A DNA stretch of 64,000 nucleotides, taken from contig NZ_CP150096.1 of assembly GCF_038396765.1 (NCBI RefSeq), positions 5,191,001 through 5,255,000 of the forward strand. Direction: 5' to 3'. How positions within the stretch are numbered: position 1 is the stretch's first letter; the number at the start of each line of letters is the position of its first letter. Below, in pieces: positions 46,738 to 56,765 of this stretch. The position numbers and the translations under genes are program-made. Under the pieces are notes generated by a model. The model saw nothing but the letters and a program-made list of their open reading frames with translations. It did not search any database and had not been told where the DNA came from. Origin of the DNA: Chitinophaga caseinilytica (GTDB lineage: Bacteria; Bacteroidota; Bacteroidia; Chitinophagales; Chitinophagaceae).

Positions 46738-46767
46738 AGGACCGCGGGCGCCGCGGTCCTCTTTTTT
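46738..46767 (+). terminator. rho-independent terminator
   Basis: A 10-bp perfect stem (AGGACCGCGG / CCGCGGTCCT) with loop GCG is followed by CTTTTTT, 10 bases after the stop of the TonB-like gene. Confidence 0.92.
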
Positions 46768-46939
46768 GCCGGAACGGATCATTTGGCTTACATTTGGGTA
46801 CATCAGCCCGGAGCAACCCGTCAGCAGATTTAACGAAACATCAGCCCCCAAAACACGAAACCCCGGCATTACCCTTCGCACATCGCAGACCGATAAAAAT
46901 TTGATCACCGCCTCCGCCGGGGGCGCAACCTGTTTTGCC

Positions 46940-48343
46940 ATGCGCAGCATCCGCCGCAATCCGAACAACAGTTCGCGGAAACCCTCCGCCCAGCCATCTT
47001 TCTTCAATCCGCCGCAGGCTTCATCTACCCAGCACAAACTGGCAGCAACAGCCGGAAAGGGTGAGCCCATCCCCGCCCCCACCCGCCATTTCATGGAAAA
47101 CGCCTTCGGCGCCGATTTCTCCAACGTCCACATCCACACCGGCGCATCCGCCGCGGAACTGAACGGCGACGTGCAGGCCAAAGCCTTCACTTACGGAAGC
47201 GATATCTACTTCGACCATCAACAATACCAACCCCACACGCCCGAAGGCCAGCACCTCCTCGCCCACGAACTGACGCACGTCCTGCAACAGGGCAACACCG
47301 CCAAAAGGCGCATCCAGCGGGCGGATATCCATCACCGCAAACTCACCTGGGCCGATTTCACGGCAGACGTCCCCAAGAAAACGACCGGGTTCGAAGCCGC
47401 CACGAAATCGGACATCGAAGATTTCGACGTATCGAAATACCCTTTCAAAAAACTCACCGAAACGGAAAACGGCACCTCTTTCCAATCGGGCAAAACGGTG
47501 ACCGATTGCGAGAAAGGAAAAGACAAAGACAAAAAAGCCGCCGAACATCCAGAAAAATACAAAGCCTATAAAGTGAACATCGAGGGCGATACGAGCAAGC
47601 TCAAAGTGAAAGCCTACATGCGGCAGGAAGAATCCTGGGCCAAAAAATGGCTGTACGACCCCAAAGAGCGCGAAGCCCACGCCGATACGTTCGTGCCCGC
47701 CTGCGAAAGCCAGTTCAACAAAAGCCAGACGTCTTCAGAAAAAGCGTGCGACAACGACGTGAAGGCCTGCGCCGCGGAAATGAAGAAAAAGAAGCTCGCT
47801 TCCTATAAAATCTACAACACCACCGTCACCGATCCGGCCGATTGCGGGAATATCAAGCCCAATTGCGTGAAAGACCGGATGAGCAGTGTCAAATATCAAT
47901 GGAAAAACCATAACAACGTGAAAGTGGAAGCGTCTAAGCTCGGCGACTGCAAAACCTCGTTCAAGAAAGGCCTCATCAATACCGGTCTGGCGGATTCCAG
48001 CACATCGCTCCTCAACCACGAGCAGCGCCATTTCGACATCACGCACCAGGTGGCCGAAAAAATCAGCACCGAAATGCAGACCCTCGCCTCCTCGTTCGCC
48101 ACGAAGGAAGTGGAAGCCTGCGGAAAAGGAAATGCGCTGGCCGCTGCCGAAAAGGAGCTGAAAAGCCAGCGCAAAAAGCTGTCAGACAAAATGAAAGCCA
48201 TCCGCAAAACCCTCGGCACTTACCAGAAAAATTACGATAACGAAACCAATCACAGCAAGGTGGTGAAAGCGCAGGATTGGTGGAACCGCAATATCGACAC
48301 GGGTTTGCCGAAATCGTCCGGGGTGAAGGACAAGTTCATCTAA
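46940..48343 (+). CDS. DUF4157-DUF922 double zinc-metalloprotease-like protein
   Basis: The start is ATG 46940 (MRSIRRNPNNSSRK), 467 residues; a longer frame from a TTG at 46766 overlaps a terminator. Residues about 45-120 are a DUF4157 domain (HFMENAFGADFSNVHIHTG ... HLLAHELTHVLQQG, HELTH 109-113), found in proteins linked to extracellular contractile injection systems and polymorphic toxins. Residues about 135-370 resemble DUF922 (LTWADFTADVP; second site LLNHEQRHFDI, HEQRH 360-364). The C-terminus is a Lys/Glu-rich helix region. There is no signal peptide and no injection-system gene nearby. It may be a loaded effector or self-processing precursor; this is inference. Confidence 0.8.
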   Translation: MRSIRRNPNNSSRKPSAQPSFFNPPQASSTQHKLAATAGKGEPIPAPTRHFMENAFGADFSNVHIHTGASAAELNGDVQAKAFTYGSDIYFDHQQYQPHTPEGQHLLAHELTHVLQQGNTAKRRIQRADIHHRKLTWADFTADVPKKTTGFEAATKSDIEDFDVSKYPFKKLTETENGTSFQSGKTVTDCEKGKDKDKKAAEHPEKYKAYKVNIEGDTSKLKVKAYMRQEESWAKKWLYDPKEREAHADTFVPACESQFNKSQTSSEKACDNDVKACAAEMKKKKLASYKIYNTTVTDPADCGNIKPNCVKDRMSSVKYQWKNHNNVKVEASKLGDCKTSFKKGLINTGLADSSTSLLNHEQRHFDITHQVAEKISTEMQTLASSFATKEVEACGKGNALAAAEKELKSQRKKLSDKMKAIRKTLGTYQKNYDNETNHSKVVKAQDWWNRNIDTGLPKSSGVKDKFI

Positions 48344-50811: not shown

Positions 50812-51882
50812 TTATGGGACGGCAGACCCGTTTTGCCCGAAATCGGTGGTTTTCAATTCCTTTTTGACCACGGTATACTGTTCCGCAGCCTTTTGGAGCC
50901 TTTTGCGGATGAACCCCACGAGGTTCCTGGGCGCCAGTACCTGCATCATTTCCCCGAAACCCAGGATCTCGCGCTCCAGTTCGAAGTTCAGCGTAACGTC
51001 GATCCGGACCATGATGCTCCCGTCTGCCTCCTGGCGGAGGAGTTGCTGCGAATGATGGAGGGGCTTGGTCAGTACGTAGGGTGCCTGGTTGGGATGCACC
51101 CACAGGACGACCTTTTGCGGGCGGTCGCGCTCCGACCGCGTGACCCCGAGCGTTTCCGCGAAATACCGTTCGAAGTCGACGCCCGTGTAGGGAACATAGT
51201 CTTTGGGGGACATTTCCATGAACTCCACGATCCGGTCGAGCGCCAGGGTCACCAATGCGCTGCCTTTCCGCGGATGGGTGATGAGGAACCACCGGTTCCG
51301 GTATTCCTTCAGCAAATACGGATGGTACACGGCCGGGATGGGGGCTTTGGCCTTGAAAGACTGGTAGGTGATGAGCAACGGCACCTTTTTGCGGATGGCC
51401 TGGTACAGGGGCAGGATGTGTTCCAGGCCTTTTAATAATTTATTCCCTTCGAGCTGGATGTGGTTGTGCTCGCGGTTCACGGATTTATGGAGGCTGTTTT
51501 CCAGCCGGGCGATGATATCGTTCATATCATCGAAATAATCGAACCCGTTCATCTGGCGCAAAACGCTCACGATCTCCGACATTTTCTCCACATCGGCATC
51601 CGTCACTTTCGAATGGTTGATGCTGTAATCCCTGTCTGAATACATGTAGTACCGTTTGTTCAGTACTACGATGGGCGCATTGTAGCCGAGCTTGTTGCTG
51701 CGCATGAGCTGGATATCGGCCTGAACGGTGCGTTTGCTCACGCCGCCGGTGATGCCTTCGTATTCGTACAGGGCTTCCGACACTTTTTCGATCAGCATGT
51801 CCAGCGTCCATTTGCGGTTGCTGTTGCGGAGGCACTGGTCGATCGTCTTATAACGGATCAGGGCAACTTTATGTATCGCCAT
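50812..51882 (-). CDS. WYL-domain transcriptional regulator
   Basis: The start is ATG 51882 (MAIHKVALIRYKTIDQCLRN), 356 residues; a TTG 14 codons upstream is less likely. The N-terminal winged HTH covers about 1-80 (DMLIEKVSEALYEYEGITGGVSKRTVQADIQLMRS region). The WYL domain covers about 150-230 (LLITYQSFKAKAPIPAVYHPYLLKEYRNRWFLIT region, where family positions bind nucleic-acid or nucleotide ligands), and a WCX-like C-terminus follows. WYL regulators often control defence and RNA- or DNA-damage loci and can sense nucleic-acid fragments. It is divergent from the RNA-unit/RING-TerD/RlaP cassette, with matching half-sites in the shared region, so it is its likely regulator. Confidence 0.9.
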   Translation of the reverse strand: MAIHKVALIRYKTIDQCLRNSNRKWTLDMLIEKVSEALYEYEGITGGVSKRTVQADIQLMRSNKLGYNAPIVVLNKRYYMYSDRDYSINHSKVTDADVEKMSEIVSVLRQMNGFDYFDDMNDIIARLENSLHKSVNREHNHIQLEGNKLLKGLEHILPLYQAIRKKVPLLITYQSFKAKAPIPAVYHPYLLKEYRNRWFLITHPRKGSALVTLALDRIVEFMEMSPKDYVPYTGVDFERYFAETLGVTRSERDRPQKVVLWVHPNQAPYVLTKPLHHSQQLLRQEADGSIMVRIDVTLNFELEREILGFGEMMQVLAPRNLVGFIRKRLQKAAEQYTVVKKELKTTDFGQNGSAVP

Positions 51883-51924
51883 GGGAAAAGGGGATTTCCG
51901 GTAAATATATCCCACGCCGTTCAA

Positions 51925-51960
51925 TTACGCAACAAAACTGCGCAATACAGTTGCGCAGTT
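51925..51960. promoter_or_regulatory. operator palindrome for the WYL gene / RNA cassette
   Basis: AACTGCGCAA (51936-51945), 5-base spacer TACAG and TTGCGCAGTT (51951-51960) form a perfect 10-bp inverted repeat. A further half-site TTACGCAA lies at 51925-51932. It falls where the -33 region of a leftward WYL promoter would be (a 7-of-8 -7 box is at 51902-51909), which fits autoregulation. Confidence 0.6.
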
Positions 51961-51993
51961 CTTCCAACCCCTCATTTATCCTTCCAATTTGTT

Positions 51994-52022
51994 TTGACAT
52001 ACATAAATGATTATCAAATAAT
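51994..52022 (+). promoter_or_regulatory. possible promoter of the RNA/RING-TerD/RlaP cassette
   Basis: TTGACA (51994-51999), a 17-base spacer and AATAAT (52017-52022) resemble a sigma70-type promoter, in an AT-rich stretch between the two groups of ACTGCGCAA half-sites. Bacteroidota normally use other boxes, so support is weak. Confidence 0.3.
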
Positions 52023-52048
52023 TACAAAATATTTTAAAATTTCTTTTC

Positions 52049-52080
52049 ACTACGCAAGTCCCCTGCATCCTACTGCGCAA
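52049..52080. promoter_or_regulatory. second cluster of ACTGCGCAA half-sites
   Basis: ACTACGCAA (52049-52057) and ACTGCGCAA (52072-52080) are direct copies of the half-site in the palindrome at 51936-51960. They are spaced 23 bases apart and lie about 45-80 bases before the first tRNA-like unit. Two operator clusters flanking one AT-rich segment suggest looping or two promoters controlled by the same protein. Confidence 0.5.
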
Positions 52081-52126
52081 ATATTTGCATTGTCAAACAA
52101 CGATAGTTCTTTACGACGCAAAAAAC

Positions 52127-52376
52127 GGAACAGTAGCTCAGCTGGTAGAGCAGGTTAGTTCAGCGATTGCCCAATATAGCGGCCAGGCTGAACTTACTTC
52201 ACGCGCCTTTAACGCCCGGGTCGCGGGTTCGAACCCCGCCTGTTCCGCAAACGGTCAAGTCCGGCTTACTTCCAACACGGCTCATGCAGGTTCGAATCCT
52301 GCCTTTTGGAGCCGGGCCACCACCGGTCAGGTCAATGTCTGCTTACTGCCAACTTCCTTTTAGAACGCAGCAGACA
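52127..52376 (+). ncRNA. structured RNA unit 1: tRNA-like fold plus two hairpins
   Basis: Acceptor GGAACAG (52127-52133) pairs with CTGTTCC (52240-52246). The D-arm is GCTC/GAGC (52136-52151). The T-arm is GCGGG-TTCGAAC-CCCGC (52223-52239). The 3' end is GCA, without a full CCA. The anticodon arm is abnormal: GTTA/TAAC closes an insert with a 7-bp stem GTTCAGC/GCTGAAC (52158-52193). A second hairpin, GTCCGGCT/AGCCGGGC (52259-52317), encloses a lone T-arm GCAGG-TTCGAAT-CCTGC (52286-52302). A third is TGTCTGCT/AGCAGACA (52336-52376). It cannot be a standard tRNA, because there is no 7-base anticodon loop. Closest idea: a YrlA-like tRNA-mimic RNA. Confidence 0.75.
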
Positions 52377-52622
52377 GCTTACCTAAGTTCTTTATTTCGA
52401 CGGAACAGTAGCGCAAAGTGGTTAGCGCACATCATGTATGAAATCCACCGGTTACCTGTGTGCAGGTCAAGCTGGATTTACTTCTCATTTTTGGATGATG
52501 GGGTTGCGGGTTCGAGTCCCGCCTGTTCCGCCAATGGTCAAGTCCGGCTTACTTCGCCTGTAAAAAAGGCTTTCCAAGCAGCCGGGCGATTACTTCACCG
52601 GAGGTCAACCGCCGCTTACTCC
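52181..52622 (+). repeat. six dispersed copies of the motif GGTCAA-N7/8-TTACTTC
   Basis: Copies begin near 52181 (variant GGCCAG), 52253, 52325 (variant, GGTCA doubled), 52465, 52536 and 52603. A TTACTTC-only copy is at 52590. The copies at 52253 and 52536 are identical over 20 bases (GGTCAAGTCCGGCTTACTTC). In each copy the 7-8 middle bases form one strand of a helix, pairing upstream in the tRNA-like inserts and downstream in the other hairpins. Several spacings are about 67-75 bases, close to a tRNA length. This suggests a common protein-binding or processing site. Confidence 0.7.
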
Positions 52623-52647
52623 CATCACTCAAAATGACGAGCGGCGG
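52402..52647 (+). ncRNA. structured RNA unit 2: tRNA-like fold plus two hairpins
   Basis: Same plan as unit 1 with changed but still paired stems. Acceptor GGAACAG/CTGTTCC (52402-52529), discriminator G and encoded CCA (52531-52533). D-arm GCGC/GCGC (52411-52428). Anticodon-position stem CATCA/TGATG (52430-52500) with an inserted 7-bp hairpin AAATCCA/TGGATTT (52441-52479). T-arm GCGGG-TTCGAGT-CCCGC (52506-52522). Second hairpin GTCCGGCT/AGCCGGGC (52542-52587) holding a small GCCT/AGGC hairpin with a 7-base loop. Third hairpin CCGCCGCT/AGCGGCGG (52609-52647). It leads into the anti-Shine-Dalgarno-like tail 25 bases before the RING/TerD start. Confidence 0.75.
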
Positions 52648-52675
52648 GATCACCTCCTTCAACAAACCAACATGA
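52634..52675 (+). CDS. possible 13-codon leader peptide
   Basis: ATG 52634 opens MTSGGITSFNKPT and its TGA overlaps the ATG of the RING/TerD gene (ATGA at 52672-52675). The overlap would allow translational coupling, and the frame runs through the third hairpin and the anti-SD-like sequence. Thirteen codons can arise by chance, so support is weak. Confidence 0.2.
   Translation: MTSGGITSFNKPT
52641..52659 (+). other. 16S rRNA 3'-end (anti-Shine-Dalgarno) mimic
   Basis: GCGGCGGGATCACCTCCTT differs at one base from GCGGCTGGATCACCTCCTT, a common bacterial 16S 3' end. As in 16S, a hairpin (52609-52647) comes directly before the CCTCC tail. It lies 12 bases before the RING/TerD ATG. It is the complement of a ribosome-binding site, so it cannot act as one. 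Confidence 0.6.
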
Positions 52676-54912
52676 ACAAACAATTACAAACAGTCGCCAT
52701 CCGCCACCAGGCGGTTTACATCCCGGAAACGAGCGCCTGTGTTTCCAAAACACTCCGGGAGCCCGCGGCCAGCCTGGCCGTGAACCTCGCGAAGCTGGGA
52801 TTCAGGATGGACGAGCCCCTCCTCCACCAGGTGAACCAGCTGCCCGCACCGGCCGTACTCGCCGTGTACGATGCTTTCCGCGAAACCCTGCAGGTCAACC
52901 GGAACTGGACGCCCCTCGTGAAAGGATGGGACCAGCCTACCAACGAAAAGCGCTCCCATCACTGGATCACCGCCATCGCCAATATCTTCCGCGAAGATTT
53001 CGAAGGCACGACGCTCGCCTGCGGGCACCTCATCCCCGACCATACGTTCCCCCTCGAGCGTTACAACGGCTGTCCGTTCTGCGGAACGCCGTTCGAAACC
53101 GGTGGAAAGATTTTCACGGGACAAGGCTCAACATACAAACTGCTCACGCTGTGGACGGATGCTTCCATGCAAACCGCGCTCCACGACCTGCTGACCTCCA
53201 AAACCGCGCTGGACGCCACACAGGCAGATTCGCTGCGCATTTTGCTGGCACATTACCCGCTGCCCGACGTGGCCATCGGGATGAAAGAAACCCTCATGCT
53301 CGTGATCTCCGCGCTGGCAGCCGCCGGCAAGGGAAAGGAAGCGGGAAAGTTCCTGCAAGCGCCCGGAGACATCCTGCGATACCTCTGGTTCCGGCATACG
53401 GGGTTCCTGCAGATCGTGCAGCCGTCGGTTATCGTAAAGCGCACAGCGCGGAACCACCTGCACGTAGTGCCCGGTAACAGCAAGGCACAAAAAGCACAGG
53501 CTGCCTCCAAAGCCCGGCTGAAACTGAAGTACGGAAGAAAGGAAGCGCGCATGGTGGCGGGATGGATCAACGACATGCCCCTGTCTGCCGAAAAAGCGGC
53601 GGAACAGATGCACCCGAAAAGGGAAATCTGGGTACGCTACATCCGGGCGCTCCGCCTCGCTGAATTCAGCCACCGGCCGGGCATGGAAAAACTGGCACGG
53701 CTGCTGGACGTTTTTTATCACCGGAAATACGAAGTATGGGCCGGAAAACTGGAACAGGCGCGCATCCGCCACGACGCAGCCACTGCATTCGGTTTGCTGC
53801 AGGAACGCCCCGGGCAATTCGCGCGGGCGCTGTTCTCCAACATGCTGTGGTTCGGGAAAGAAGACACGCTGCAGGCATTCGGGCAAGTGAAGGGACAAGT
53901 GCCCGCACGGTTGCTGCTGACGCTGAACAGCTACGCAGAAAACTACTTCGTGCTGAAAATGCCGCGGGCGGTGAAGCCCCTGGGAGGTACTGCCAAACAA
54001 GTGAAACCCAACCAGCTGCTGGCCCTTTACCCCGACGAACAGCGGGAGGCCATGGCACAGGGGATCGAACAAGTGTTCCTGGAATCGATGTTCGACCGCT
54101 ATGCCGCACAGCCCACCGCGAGCCGCACCCTGTTCATCGACCCGGTATTGCAGATGATGCCGATGCCCGTGGGAGAACGTTCGGAGAACGTGCAAGACCT
54201 CCCGTCTGCCCTTATGGGAACACGCTTTTCCGTTCCGGGCAACCAGGTGCGCCTCTTCATGCAATGGGGGAAAAACCTCCCGGCGCAGCACCTGGACATG
54301 GACCTGAGCGCAGCCATCGTTTACGAAAAGAAAACGGAGATCTGCAACTTCGGAAATCTGAGCATCACCGGCGCGCGACATAGCGGAGACATCCGCGCCA
54401 TCCCGAACTGGAATGGTACCGCGGAGTACATCGATATCGACATCGACGTACTGCAAAAAGCCGGTGCTCGATATGCCGTGTTCACCTGCAACGCCTACAG
54501 CCATGGCGCCATCTCCCCCAACCTCGTGACCGGGTGGATGAACAGCGCACATCGAATGCAGGTGGATGCCGATACCGGAGTGGCTTACGACCCTTCCTGC
54601 GTGGAGCACCAGGTGCGGATCACGCAGTCGCTCACCAAAGGACTCATCTTCGGCGTGCTCGACATGGCCGCCGGCGAGATCATCTGGCTGGAACAGGCGT
54701 TCAACGGGCAAACGGTCCACAGCCTGAACCTGAAGACGCTGCAACTCCAACTGGCAAAGCTCCAGGCGCGGACCACTGTGGGCCGGCTGCTGGAACTGAA
54801 AGCACAGGCTCAGGGGCTGACGATCGTGCAGGAAGCGCAGGATGCCGACGAGGCTTACACAAAAGAATGGGCGCGCAACATCGCCGCCGTAACACAATTA
54901 CTGACCGACTGA
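52672..54912 (+). CDS. RING-like/TerD-domain protein of the MXAN_6230/SCO0854 type
   Basis: The 746-residue cytosolic protein has a zinc RING-like knuckle at LACGHLIPDHTFPLERYNGCPFCG (quoted in part as CGH at 117-119 and CPFC at 134-137). A long alpha-helical, HEAT/TROVE-like middle spans about 150-500. A TerD-like domain covers about 525-690 (HLDMDLSAAIVYEKK, ICNFGNLSITGARHSGDI, AEYIDIDIDVL). The combination matches a family known from Myxococcus and Streptomyces; its biochemical role is unknown, but TerD and RlaP genes recur in predicted RNA-repair and stress-response loci. The leader is A-rich. Two nucleotidyltransferase genes follow after 42 bases, so one operon with the RNA units is likely. 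Confidence 0.8.
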   Translation: MNKQLQTVAIRHQAVYIPETSACVSKTLREPAASLAVNLAKLGFRMDEPLLHQVNQLPAPAVLAVYDAFRETLQVNRNWTPLVKGWDQPTNEKRSHHWITAIANIFREDFEGTTLACGHLIPDHTFPLERYNGCPFCGTPFETGGKIFTGQGSTYKLLTLWTDASMQTALHDLLTSKTALDATQADSLRILLAHYPLPDVAIGMKETLMLVISALAAAGKGKEAGKFLQAPGDILRYLWFRHTGFLQIVQPSVIVKRTARNHLHVVPGNSKAQKAQAASKARLKLKYGRKEARMVAGWINDMPLSAEKAAEQMHPKREIWVRYIRALRLAEFSHRPGMEKLARLLDVFYHRKYEVWAGKLEQARIRHDAATAFGLLQERPGQFARALFSNMLWFGKEDTLQAFGQVKGQVPARLLLTLNSYAENYFVLKMPRAVKPLGGTAKQVKPNQLLALYPDEQREAMAQGIEQVFLESMFDRYAAQPTASRTLFIDPVLQMMPMPVGERSENVQDLPSALMGTRFSVPGNQVRLFMQWGKNLPAQHLDMDLSAAIVYEKKTEICNFGNLSITGARHSGDIRAIPNWNGTAEYIDIDIDVLQKAGARYAVFTCNAYSHGAISPNLVTGWMNSAHRMQVDADTGVAYDPSCVEHQVRITQSLTKGLIFGVLDMAAGEIIWLEQAFNGQTVHSLNLKTLQLQLAKLQARTTVGRLLELKAQAQGLTIVQEAQDADEAYTKEWARNIAAVTQLLTD

Positions 54913-54954
54913 CGACGCCCTTCGGGGCATCGCCGGCCTTACATCCATAACCCA

Positions 54955-55704
54955 ATGAGACAACAAATAACGACATCGCTGCAATCCCTCGCGGCTGCCC
55001 ACCAGGTGAAAATACTCTTCGCCTGCGAATCGGGCAGCCGGGCCTGGGGGTTCCCATCGCCGGACAGCGATTACGACGCAAGATTCATATACGTTCAAAA
55101 GCCGGAAGCCTACCTTTCGCTCAGCGACGCCAAAGAGCATTTGTCGCTGCCGCTGACCAGCGAGCTGGACGTATGCGGATGGGACCTCCGCAAGGCGCTG
55201 CGCCTGCTGTACAAATCGAACTGCACGCCTTTCGAGTGGCTGCAATCGCCGGTGGTGTACATGGAGCGGGAAGGTTTCCGCGAAAGCATGACAGACCTGC
55301 TCCCGCTGTATTTCAATGGCCGCAGGCAGATACATCACTATCTCGGCATCGCGCAGGGCGCGCTTGCCACGATGCAGGGAAAGCAGATAGGCGTCAAGAA
55401 ACTGTTCTATGTATTGCGCCCGCTGCTCGCCGCCAACTGGATAGCGACAAAGGGCGCATATCCGCCCATGACCCTGCAGCCCTTGCTGGAACTCGCTCCT
55501 GCCAGCATACAGCGGATAGTGGATGATTTGATACGATGGAAAACGGAAGCCGTGGAAAGTGCGCCGGTGGAAGTTCCCGGAGAACTGATGCAATTTATGA
55601 CCGAACGTATGCGATCGCTTGCGGAAGCGGCATCTTCCGAAAACAGGATGTCCATATCCACCGCGCCGCTGGACGCGTACTTCCAAAAAATGCTGTCATG
55701 TTAG
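54955..55704 (+). CDS. RlaP-type nucleotidyltransferase (DNA polymerase beta superfamily), copy 1
   Basis: The 249-residue protein has the nucleotidyltransferase core FACESGSRAWGFPSPDSDYDARFIYV (in part: GSRAWG and DSDYD at about residues 24-37). The GS and DxD residues bind metal and NTP. The remainder (DVCGWDLRKALRLLYKSNCTPFEWLQSP) is typical of the PF10127 family, called RlaP because members sit beside RNA ligases. It would add nucleotides to an RNA end, perhaps healing cleaved tRNA or rRNA. Its stop overlaps the next gene's ATG by 7 bases. Confidence 0.85.
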   Translation: MRQQITTSLQSLAAAHQVKILFACESGSRAWGFPSPDSDYDARFIYVQKPEAYLSLSDAKEHLSLPLTSELDVCGWDLRKALRLLYKSNCTPFEWLQSPVVYMEREGFRESMTDLLPLYFNGRRQIHHYLGIAQGALATMQGKQIGVKKLFYVLRPLLAANWIATKGAYPPMTLQPLLELAPASIQRIVDDLIRWKTEAVESAPVEVPGELMQFMTERMRSLAEAASSENRMSISTAPLDAYFQKMLSC

Positions 55705-56765
55705 ACATAGCTTACCTGAAAGCGAATGGCCTCGTGCTTTTCGAAGCCCTGAGCGGCAGCCGGGCTTATGGGCTGGACACGCCGTCGTCCGACACCGATG
55801 TGAAAGGCGTGTTTTTCCTGCCGCGGCATATGTTCTTTTCGGGGGAATATGTGCCACAGGTGGCCAACGCTTCGAACGACGTCGTGTATTACGAACTGGG
55901 GCGGTTCGTGGAGCTGTTGTGCAAGAACAATCCCAACATGCTGGAATTGCTCTGCACGCCGGCACCTGCGGTAAATTTCCGGCACCCGTTGATGGACGCG
56001 TTCCCGGTGGAAATGTTCCTGTCGAAACTGGCGGAAGAAACCTTCGCCGGGTATGCCTGGTCGCAGATCGGAAAAGCGAAGGGACTGAACAAGAAGATCA
56101 ACAACCCCGAGCCCGAAACGCGCAAAACCCCGATGGACTGCTGTTACGTGACGGCAGGAGGCAAAACGGTATCGCTGGCGGCCTGGTTGAGGGCCACGCG
56201 CAGGCGCCCGGAATATTGCGGCCTCACGGCGATGCCGCACACCAAAGGCCTGTACGCCCTGTATTACGATGAAGCTGCGGGATACCGGGGGATCGTTTCC
56301 GGTGCGGATAGCGATGATGTGCATTGCTCACCCGTGGCAAAGGGAACGGCGCCGGAAGCGTACCTTTTCTTCAACCAGGAAGCGTATTCCGCACATTGCC
56401 GGTCTTACGCCGCGTATTGGAAATGGGTGGGCGAGCGTAACGAAGCGCGGTTCACCGGCAACCAGGCGCACGGCAAAGGGTTCGATGCCAAGAACATGAT
56501 GCACACCACCCGGCTGTTGCGCATGGCGCATGAACTGTTTACCGAAGGCGAACTGCGGGTATGGCGGCGCGACCGGGAAGAACTGCTCGCCATCAAGCGC
56601 GGGGAACGGGATTATGATGATTTGCTCCGGGACGCGGAAACGCTCATGGCAGCCATCGCGTCCGCCGCGCGGAAGAGCCCGCTACCCGATAAGCCCGATC
56701 CCGGCGCCGCGCGAAATGCCCTGGCGGCCGTGCGCGAAAAACTGTATTACCCTGCTGTTCTCTGA
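55698..56765 (+). CDS. RlaP-type nucleotidyltransferase (DNA polymerase beta superfamily), copy 2
   Basis: The start is ATG 55698 (MLDIAYLKANGLVLFEALSG), 355 residues; the open frame upstream to 55536 overlaps copy 1 out of frame and is not protein-like. The core is GSRAYGLDTPSSDTDVKGVFFLP (in part: GSRAYG and SSDTD), followed by YYELGRFVELLCKNNPNMLELL and a C-terminal helical region with NQAHGKGFDAKNMMHTTRLLRMAHE, conserved in this family. It is about 100 residues longer than copy 1 and clearly diverged, so the pair probably has different ends or substrates, or forms a heterodimer. Confidence 0.87.
   Translation: MLDIAYLKANGLVLFEALSGSRAYGLDTPSSDTDVKGVFFLPRHMFFSGEYVPQVANASNDVVYYELGRFVELLCKNNPNMLELLCTPAPAVNFRHPLMDAFPVEMFLSKLAEETFAGYAWSQIGKAKGLNKKINNPEPETRKTPMDCCYVTAGGKTVSLAAWLRATRRRPEYCGLTAMPHTKGLYALYYDEAAGYRGIVSGADSDDVHCSPVAKGTAPEAYLFFNQEAYSAHCRSYAAYWKWVGERNEARFTGNQAHGKGFDAKNMMHTTRLLRMAHELFTEGELRVWRRDREELLAIKRGERDYDDLLRDAETLMAAIASAARKSPLPDKPDPGAARNALAAVREKLYYPAVL

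What the first reader, a model, noticed from the sequence alone, without database searches (positions are those of the whole stretch)
50812..56765. Candidate new RNA surveillance/repair cassette: WYL regulator, two tRNA-like RNA units, RING-TerD protein, two RlaP nucleotidyltransferases
Seen: a WYL gene is divergent from a 550-base tract with two tRNA-like structured units and a 16S 3'-end mimic. This tract runs straight into a RING-like/TerD protein and two overlapping PF10127-type nucleotidyltransferases. Known: RNA-repair operons such as rsr-yrlBA-rtcBA combine tRNA-mimic Y RNAs, an RNA-binding protein and repair enzymes; RlaP proteins associate with RNA ligases; WYL domains can sense nucleic acids. 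Inference: the RNAs act as bait, tether or template for detecting or healing cleaved tRNA/rRNA, with WYL as damage sensor. No ligase or kinase is visible in the window, so it is not a standard repair operon.
Basis: partly seen in the sequence, partly recalled or inferred. Interest (0 to 1): 0.95.

Follow-up and report, generated by a model that had tools for sequence, protein, structure and literature searches.

The report
Cryptic Ro60-like tRNA-mimic RNA repair cassette
This bacterial gene cluster carries tRNA-like sequences bearing a conserved bulged RNA stem next to a gene whose protein likely folds like human Ro60, and the two would form a Ro-type complex predicted to help the cell recognise or mend broken tRNAs.

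Summary
The tract at 52127-52660 is real and conserved. It holds six copies of one RNA stem (GGU, a bulged C, AA, a covarying 7-8 bp helix, then UUACUUC; opposite strand NAUUAYC). Two copies sit in the anticodon arm of tRNA-like units; a T-arm loop sits on a third. The motif lies upstream of the RING-TerD gene in 80 of 80 named relatives fetched (of 438 found). In two genome samples it occurs only with that gene, except in two genomes where the gene is lost or cut down. No Rfam 15 family matches the stem in the loci scanned. The helical middle of the protein matches Ro60/TROVE structures best (top six rows), and Y RNAs beside ordinary Ro genes of the phylum share UUACUUC. Best reading: a second, unrecognised Ro-Y RNA type complex for tRNA damage. 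RtcB follows the gene in 35 of 75 relatives and lies elsewhere in this genome. The "16S mimic" is one strand of the last stem; the RlaP pair is optional. Transcription, binding and repair are untested. The Ro fold rests on a predicted model, and sequence profiles do not support it.

The parts
50812..51924 (-). WYL/WCX transcription regulator, divergent from the tract
   Evidence: PF25583 and PF13280 matches; divergent WYL found in 51 of 80 relatives
51928..51955 (.). probable operator: two overlapping CGCA-N7-TGCG inverted repeats
   Evidence: CGCA-N6-9-TGCG in 84 of 93 upstream regions, 0.4% in shuffles
52127..52247 (+). tRNA-like unit 1 (acceptor, D arm, stem insert in the anticodon arm, T arm)
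   Evidence: RF00005 43.7 bits; 27-28:42-43 pairing kept in 53 of 55 distinct units
52153..52205 (+). Y-type stem copy 1 (form B, inside unit 1)
   Evidence: model R2 46.2 bits, E 9.9e-07 (this copy was in the model)
52253..52324 (+). Y-type stem copy 2 (form A) with a T-arm loop at 52285-52307
   Evidence: read from the sequence: GTCCGGC pairs 7/7 (one G-U) with GCCGGGC; repeat family D1; not found by model R1
52325..52388 (+). Y-type stem copy 3 (form A)
   Evidence: model R1 34.3 bits, E 3e-06, not in the model's training set
52402..52530 (+). tRNA-like unit 2
   Evidence: T arm; anticodon stem CATCA/TGATG restored across the insert
52438..52489 (+). Y-type stem copy 4 (form B, inside unit 2)
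   Evidence: model R2 44.0 bits (in the model)
52537..52593 (+). Y-type stem copy 5 (form A, partial match)
   Evidence: model R1 24.3 bits, E 0.00089, positions 7-59 of 65
52598..52659 (+). Y-type stem copy 6 (form A), next to the ORF; contains the supposed 16S mimic
   Evidence: model R1 44.6 bits (in the model); a copy 50-110 nt before the start codon in 79 of 98 upstream regions
52672..54912 (+). RING-like / TROVE-like / TerD protein, 746 aa
53107..54129 (+). helical-repeat domain (residues 146-486), nearest to Ro60/TROVE; invariant His314 at 53611-53613
54229..54750 (+). TerD domain (residues about 520-693)
54955..55704 (+). RlaP nucleotidyltransferase 1 (accessory)
   Evidence: PF10127 E 1.1e-71
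55698..56765 (+). RlaP nucleotidyltransferase 2 (accessory)
   Evidence: PF10127 E 3e-18

Best explanation
The tract upstream of the RING-TerD gene holds six copies of a conserved bulged RNA stem, two of them set into the anticodon arm of tRNA-like units, and it is predicted to be transcribed into Y-RNA-like partners of the RING-TerD protein, which likely has a Ro60 (TROVE) fold and would use them to recognise or hold broken tRNAs for RtcB ligation. Shown: the stem, its covariation, its near-exclusive co-occurrence with this gene, the tRNA-like bodies, the operator-like repeats, and the linkage to RtcB in relatives. Inferred: (1) WYL controls the unit through the CGCA-N7-TGCG repeats; (2) the protein binds the bulged stem through its helical ring, as Ro60 binds Y RNA; (3) the tRNA-like part docks tRNA-handling enzymes or competes with damaged tRNAs; (4) RtcB, encoded elsewhere in this genome, rejoins the cut tRNAs, with RlaP restoring lost nucleotides; (5) the copy beside the start codon lets the protein adjust its own expression.
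Confidence: 0.7

Rival explanations
1. The form B stems are introns of pre-tRNAs: cut out of the anticodon arm, with RtcB joining the halves to give back-up tRNAs, and the form A stems giving circular RNAs.
For: Removing the insert restores a 5-bp anticodon stem in 45 of 55 distinct units vs 8.2% when 5' sides are swapped; stem, U33 and a purine at 37 together in 34 of 55 vs 6.3%. 90 of 96 joined units are called tRNA, 0 of 96 unjoined, but the joins were chosen for best pairing. Restored anticodons are sensible (Lys UUU, Arg UCU, Asn GUU, Met CAU, Gly UCC among them). RtcB is the tRNA-splicing ligase and is linked.
Against: Linker length around the insert is not fixed: of 87 placed units the excess is 3 in 45 (mostly Flavobacterium), 4-5 in 12, 6-13 in 18, and 12 lie outside, five of these mis-placed. 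The copy beside the ORF is form A and not in a tRNA; regions without any tRNA-like part keep it. The Y-RNA reading explains the stem at the anticodon position without splicing.
Confidence: 0.12
2. The tract is only a cis-regulatory leader of the RING-TerD mRNA; the stems and tRNA-like parts switch its expression (for example when the leader is cut by a tRNase) and nothing acts in trans.
For: A form A stem lies 50-110 nt before the start codon in 79 of 98 regions; no core in the downstream sequence held (at most 3.8 kb, less in truncated loci) in 80 of 80 loci; the stem can persist without tRNA-like units.
Against: Up to 8 copies over 1.6 kb (L077), tRNA bodies under pairing constraint and sharing of UUACUUC with Y RNAs of ordinary Ro loci fit trans-acting RNAs better.
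Confidence: 0.13
3. The tract is a decaying tRNA gene cluster or chance folding.
For: ARAGORN finds no tRNA; some relatives have real tRNA arrays beside it.
Against: Covariation, near-invariant C and UUACUUC, and co-occurrence with one gene.
Confidence: 0.02

Closest known systems
Ro60/Rsr - Y RNA RNPs (TROVE proteins with Y or YrlA RNAs)
   Same: helical-ring protein (predicted), partner RNA with a bulged-C stem and a tRNA-like part, gene and RNA adjacent; UUACUUC shared with the Y RNAs beside ordinary Bacteroidota TROVE genes
   Different: RING-like and TerD domains, no vWA; not detected by Pfam or profile comparison; RNAs upstream, in many copies, both in ordinary and permuted order; no Rfam YrlA match
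rsr-yrlBA-rtcBA RNA repair operon of Salmonella (PMC7790460, abstract and passages read)
   Same: RNA-binding ring protein, tRNA-mimic RNAs and RtcB together
   Different: WYL in place of RtcR; RtcB is near in only 35 of 75 relatives and not in this window; RtcA was not searched for
SPFH/Band-7 and RtcB repair systems with a 'novel tRNA-like molecule' (Burroughs and Aravind 2016, doi 10.1093/nar/gkw722; paper not held, abstract recalled)
   Same: tRNA-like RNA beside RNA-repair genes; Band-7 occurs in two of the loci here
   Different: whether their RNA is this one could not be checked
MXAN_6230/SCO0854 RING family (NF041916)
   Same: 165 bits, best stretch residues 352-700
   Different: far under the curated cut-off of 600; the two distant relatives looked at (Variovorax, Streptomyces) give no match to model R1 at E up to 1

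Membership tests
Ro60/Rsr (TROVE) protein | TROVE ring of helical repeats | tested here: inconclusive
Ro60/Rsr (TROVE) protein | C-terminal vWA domain with MIDAS | tested here: not met
   TerD domain there instead; no vWA family among the Pfam matches
Ro60/Rsr (TROVE) protein | conserved His needed for Y RNA binding (H187) | tested here: inconclusive
   His314 in MHPKR is the same in 48 of 48 aligned sequences; the best local profile segment sets it on the HPK of Bacteroidota TROVE, not significant; that this HPK equals H187 is my inference
Y RNA | Ro-binding stem: about 7 bp, one bulged C, bulge on the opposite strand | tested here: met
   against the description in PMC4726728; the opposite bulge is two nt (NA) in my pairing, three in vertebrates
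Y RNA | tRNA-like module | tested here: met
   missing in 3 of 98 regions
Y RNA | bound by the partner protein | not testable with these tools
   needs pull-down or binding assay
YrlA (RF02553) | match to the Rfam model | tested here: not met
   no match at E<=1 in the window tract nor at E<=10 in the L006 tract
rsr-yrlBA-rtcBA operon | RtcR regulator | tested here: not met
   WYL regulator instead
rsr-yrlBA-rtcBA operon | rtcB in the operon | tested here: not met
   not among the neighbouring genes scanned in this window; in 35 of 75 relatives
rsr-yrlBA-rtcBA operon | rtcA | not tested
   no search was made for it
MXAN_6230/SCO0854 (NF041916) | curated cut-off 600 bits | tested here: not met
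   165 bits
RlaP (PF10127) | Pfam gathering score | tested here: met
   241.9 and 66.8 bits against 23
protein-spliced tRNA intron | fixed cleavage points that restore a tRNA | tested here: inconclusive
   anticodon stem restored but linker length varies

The most novel reading that the evidence does not exclude
The Ro-like stem in the anticodon arm is a removable intron: the RING-TROVE-TerD protein presents these pre-tRNAs for cutting and RtcB joins them, giving damage-induced replacement tRNAs. This would be protein-based tRNA splicing in bacteria, which a 2014 review says they lack (PMC4090602 passage), with a Ro relative as splicing factor.
Probability: 0.1. Interest if true: 0.95.

Novelty: new variant of a known kind. 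Interest (0 to 1): 0.8.

Why it matters
How Ro proteins and Y RNAs take part in RNA repair is unsettled. A second Ro-type protein that sequence searches do not recognise, with its own Y-like RNA family, often beside RtcB and sometimes beside arrays of ordinary tRNA genes, would tie Ro complexes directly to tRNA damage and offers a testable system in harmless laboratory bacteria such as Flavobacterium johnsoniae. It would also show that TerD can stand where Ro60 has its vWA domain.

Tried and rejected
16S mimic: rejected, it is a strand of the last stem copy. Ala identity (G3.U70): seen in many but not all acceptors (read), dropped. TSS: the Bacteroidota -7 pattern TAnnTTTG (recalled) is in 28 of 93 regions vs 12% in shuffles and not in the window stretch scanned, so no promoter is claimed. 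tRNA-likes as copies of native tRNAs: the joined F. johnsoniae unit is at best 69% identical to a native tRNA among 20 distinct ones recovered from the 30 loci fetched of 55 places. RlaP as core: rejected. Nuclease in the RING-TerD protein: none seen in the fold searches, which does not exclude one. Phages and viral contigs: no relative in viral contigs, six phage records with matches under 60% identity, none covering 80% of the protein. Literature: nothing on this RNA or its pairing with this gene in the listings of searches of the open-licence library (some listings were cut: 15 of 32, 20 of 195, 12 of 59 and 12 of 31 papers were shown); the paper most likely to mention it (10.1093/nar/gkw722) is not held. 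Limits of the counts: the search patterns fix most motif letters, so one search's 'invariant' letters are partly by construction; frees them. The rows of A3 and A4 were picked from copies with at least 6 of 7 P2 pairs and, of 37 and 31 printed, 5 and 4 were left out before alignment, so 'percent paired' is high by choice; one search is the unpicked test. One measure is weak: pairs with a change on both sides is reached by 57 of 500 shuffles for A3 and 4 of 500 for A4. The 111 units include mis-assigned pairs, so one search uses 55 distinct ones.
Full report
What is there. The window lies in a 6.5-Mb Bacteroidota genome (G000:C1:5191001-5255000); the nearest named relative fetched is Chitinophaga rhizosphaerae (92% protein identity). 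Between WYL and RING-TerD lies a non-coding tract. Rfam 15 sees one tRNA-like stretch in it (52127-52247, 43.7 bits) and fragments of T arms; ARAGORN sees none. Repeat search shows GGTCAA-N7-TTACTTC recurring.

A new RNA stem. Over relatives the repeat is one RNA stem: GGU, an unpaired C, AA, a 7-bp helix (P2) extended by an A-U pair, then UUACUUC; the other strand reads A-P2'-N-AUUAYC. Because my search patterns fixed most of these letters, I freed them afterwards: in GG[TC]NNN-N7-[TC]TACTTC the fourth base is C in 309 of 312 distinct places (165 of 165 with a 7/7 partner), the next two are AA in 305, and the spacer between GGTCAA and TTACTTC is 7 nt in 281 of 285. The stem occurs in two orders: form A (closed by the two ends, variable loop X) and form B (permuted, short loop). 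In 98 upstream regions 429 cores were found; 358 have a partner with at least 6 of 7 pairs and 239 with 7 of 7, against 19.5% and 3.7% of permuted controls; 71 have none. On alignments of picked copies, form A has 96.1% of cells paired and 98 two-sided changes against 29 in shuffles, form B 96.9% and 65 against 20, reached by 0 of 500 shuffles; the rows were picked for pairing, and the coarser count of pairs with two-sided change is reached by 57 and 4 of 500 shuffles. In the window the models find copies at 52153, 52325, 52438, 52537 (partial) and 52598 (three of the five were in the models, 52325 and 52537 were not), and a sixth, with a T arm in its loop, is read at 52253-52324. In the whole genome the core pattern occurs five times, all here (the reversed control pattern also gives five, so this count alone is weak). 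No Rfam 15 family covers the stem in the window, in eight relatives' loci at gathering threshold, or in L006 and L154.

tRNA-like units. Form B stems sit inside tRNA-like units with acceptor, D and T arms. Over 55 distinct units, positions 27-28 pair with 42-43 in 53 (18.5% when swapped), and leaving the insert out gives a full five-pair anticodon stem in 45 (8.2% when swapped). Sensible anticodons appear, Lys UUU and Arg UCU most often (the joins were chosen for best pairing). The linker around the insert is constant (excess 3) in 45 of 87 placed units, mostly Flavobacterium, 4-5 in 12, 6-13 in 18 and outside this in 12, which speaks against a precisely cut intron. Three of 98 regions have no tRNA-like part but keep the stem.

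Conservation and linkage. Of 438 relatives found in one genome per species, the best 80 were kept by the tool, from Chitinophaga, Taibaiella, Flavobacterium, Dysgonomonas, Bacteroides, Aquimarina, Tenacibaculum, Microscilla, Emticicia, Saprospiraceae and others; the other 358 were not seen. 80 of 80 have the core within 2 kb upstream and none in the downstream sequence held. In 294 family genomes the gene is in 18 and the RNA in 20: the same 18 plus two. In one of these two about 27 N-terminal residues of RING-TerD (by eye) run into RlaP; in the other no RING-TerD match lies between the tract and RlaP. In 395 phylum genomes both are in the same 11. A Segatella hominis plasmid has it too. Divergent WYL: 51 of 80. 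Operator-like CGCA-N6-9-TGCG repeats: 84 of 93 regions, 0.4% in shuffles. Downstream on the same strand: RtcB in 35 of 75 loci with room, mostly right after the gene, RlaP in 9, an RNase T-type exonuclease in 5 (2 more elsewhere in the locus), Band-7 in 1 (1 more elsewhere) (Pfam confirms five of the RtcB proteins). This genome has RtcB elsewhere. Six of 80 loci have 6 to 22 tRNA genes by ARAGORN in the upstream 6 kb; in L055 they cover 18 amino acids, in L060 they lie 5 kb away. A distant relative on a Variovorax plasmid lies near rtcR, with three small genes between; RtcR is activated by 5' tRNA halves (PMC7790460, abstract and passages).

Why Ro and Y. [quoted passage not shown] The stem here has the same parts, with a two-nucleotide bulge opposite in my pairing. 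As an independent check I took ordinary TROVE genes of the phylum (23 of 296 genomes; none in this genome) and used 20 of the 23. Ten of the 15 loci scanned have YrlA matches, all below Rfam's gathering score. Downstream of the 20 genes YTACTTC occurs 31 times against 1.6 expected, in 13 of 20 loci, and 8 times in the rest of those loci. It is preceded by GUGYYGU in 18 of 29 scored; an 8-of-8 partner was found for 5 of 29 against 1% in controls, while partners of 6 or 7 pairs are no more common than in controls. So ordinary Y RNAs of these bacteria and the new stems share a GGU-like start, a helix of fixed length and UUACUUC. In the Rfam YrlA layout the T arm precedes the D arm, so that, as I read it, the Ro stem takes the anticodon place; form B units here have the same topology with the tRNA ends open. 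The new model itself gives only one weak hit in ordinary TROVE loci, so the two RNAs are relatives at best, not one family.

Mechanism. I take the cassette for a second Ro-type RNP: the RING-TROVE-TerD protein would bind the bulged stems, the tRNA-like bodies would serve as mimic or dock for tRNA-handling enzymes, and RtcB would rejoin cut tRNAs, with RlaP, where present, restoring lost nucleotides as predicted for that family (PMC7824862 passage). The stem beside the start codon (79 of 98 regions) would allow feedback. None of this has been tested; no expression data were available.

Membership. It works like a Ro-Y RNP but is not filed as Ro60/Rsr: the vWA domain is absent and the TROVE fold is inconclusive by the tests run. 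It is not YrlA by Rfam and not the rsr-yrlBA-rtcBA operon.

Noticed in passing
L055, L030, L091, L058, L060, L067: Arrays of 6 to 22 ARAGORN tRNA genes upstream of the tract; in L055 they cover 18 amino acids, on both sides of the WYL gene, with an RNase T-type exonuclease among them.
   Followed up: partly
L157-L176, downstream flanks: Y RNAs beside ordinary Bacteroidota TROVE genes score far below the Rfam YrlA gathering score and share UUACUUC; Rfam may lack a Bacteroidota Y RNA family.
   Followed up: partly
L108: Natural deletion: about 27 N-terminal residues of RING-TerD (by eye) run straight into RlaP1, leaving WYL and one stem copy.
   Followed up: partly
L155, Variovorax sp. WDL1 plasmid: Distant RING-TerD relative near rtcR, without a match to the RNA model.
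   Followed up: partly
L097, Bacteroides cellulosilyticus DSM 14838: Only the 5' half of a tRNA (acceptor strand and D arm) is seen before the last stem.
   Followed up: no
window 46766-48343 (+): Protein with an eCIS core domain (PF13699, E 6.9e-31), apparently unrelated to the cassette.
   Followed up: no
acceptor stems of many tRNA-like units: The inner acceptor pairs CAG/CTG recur in most units and a G3.U70 wobble is frequent but not universal.
   Followed up: no
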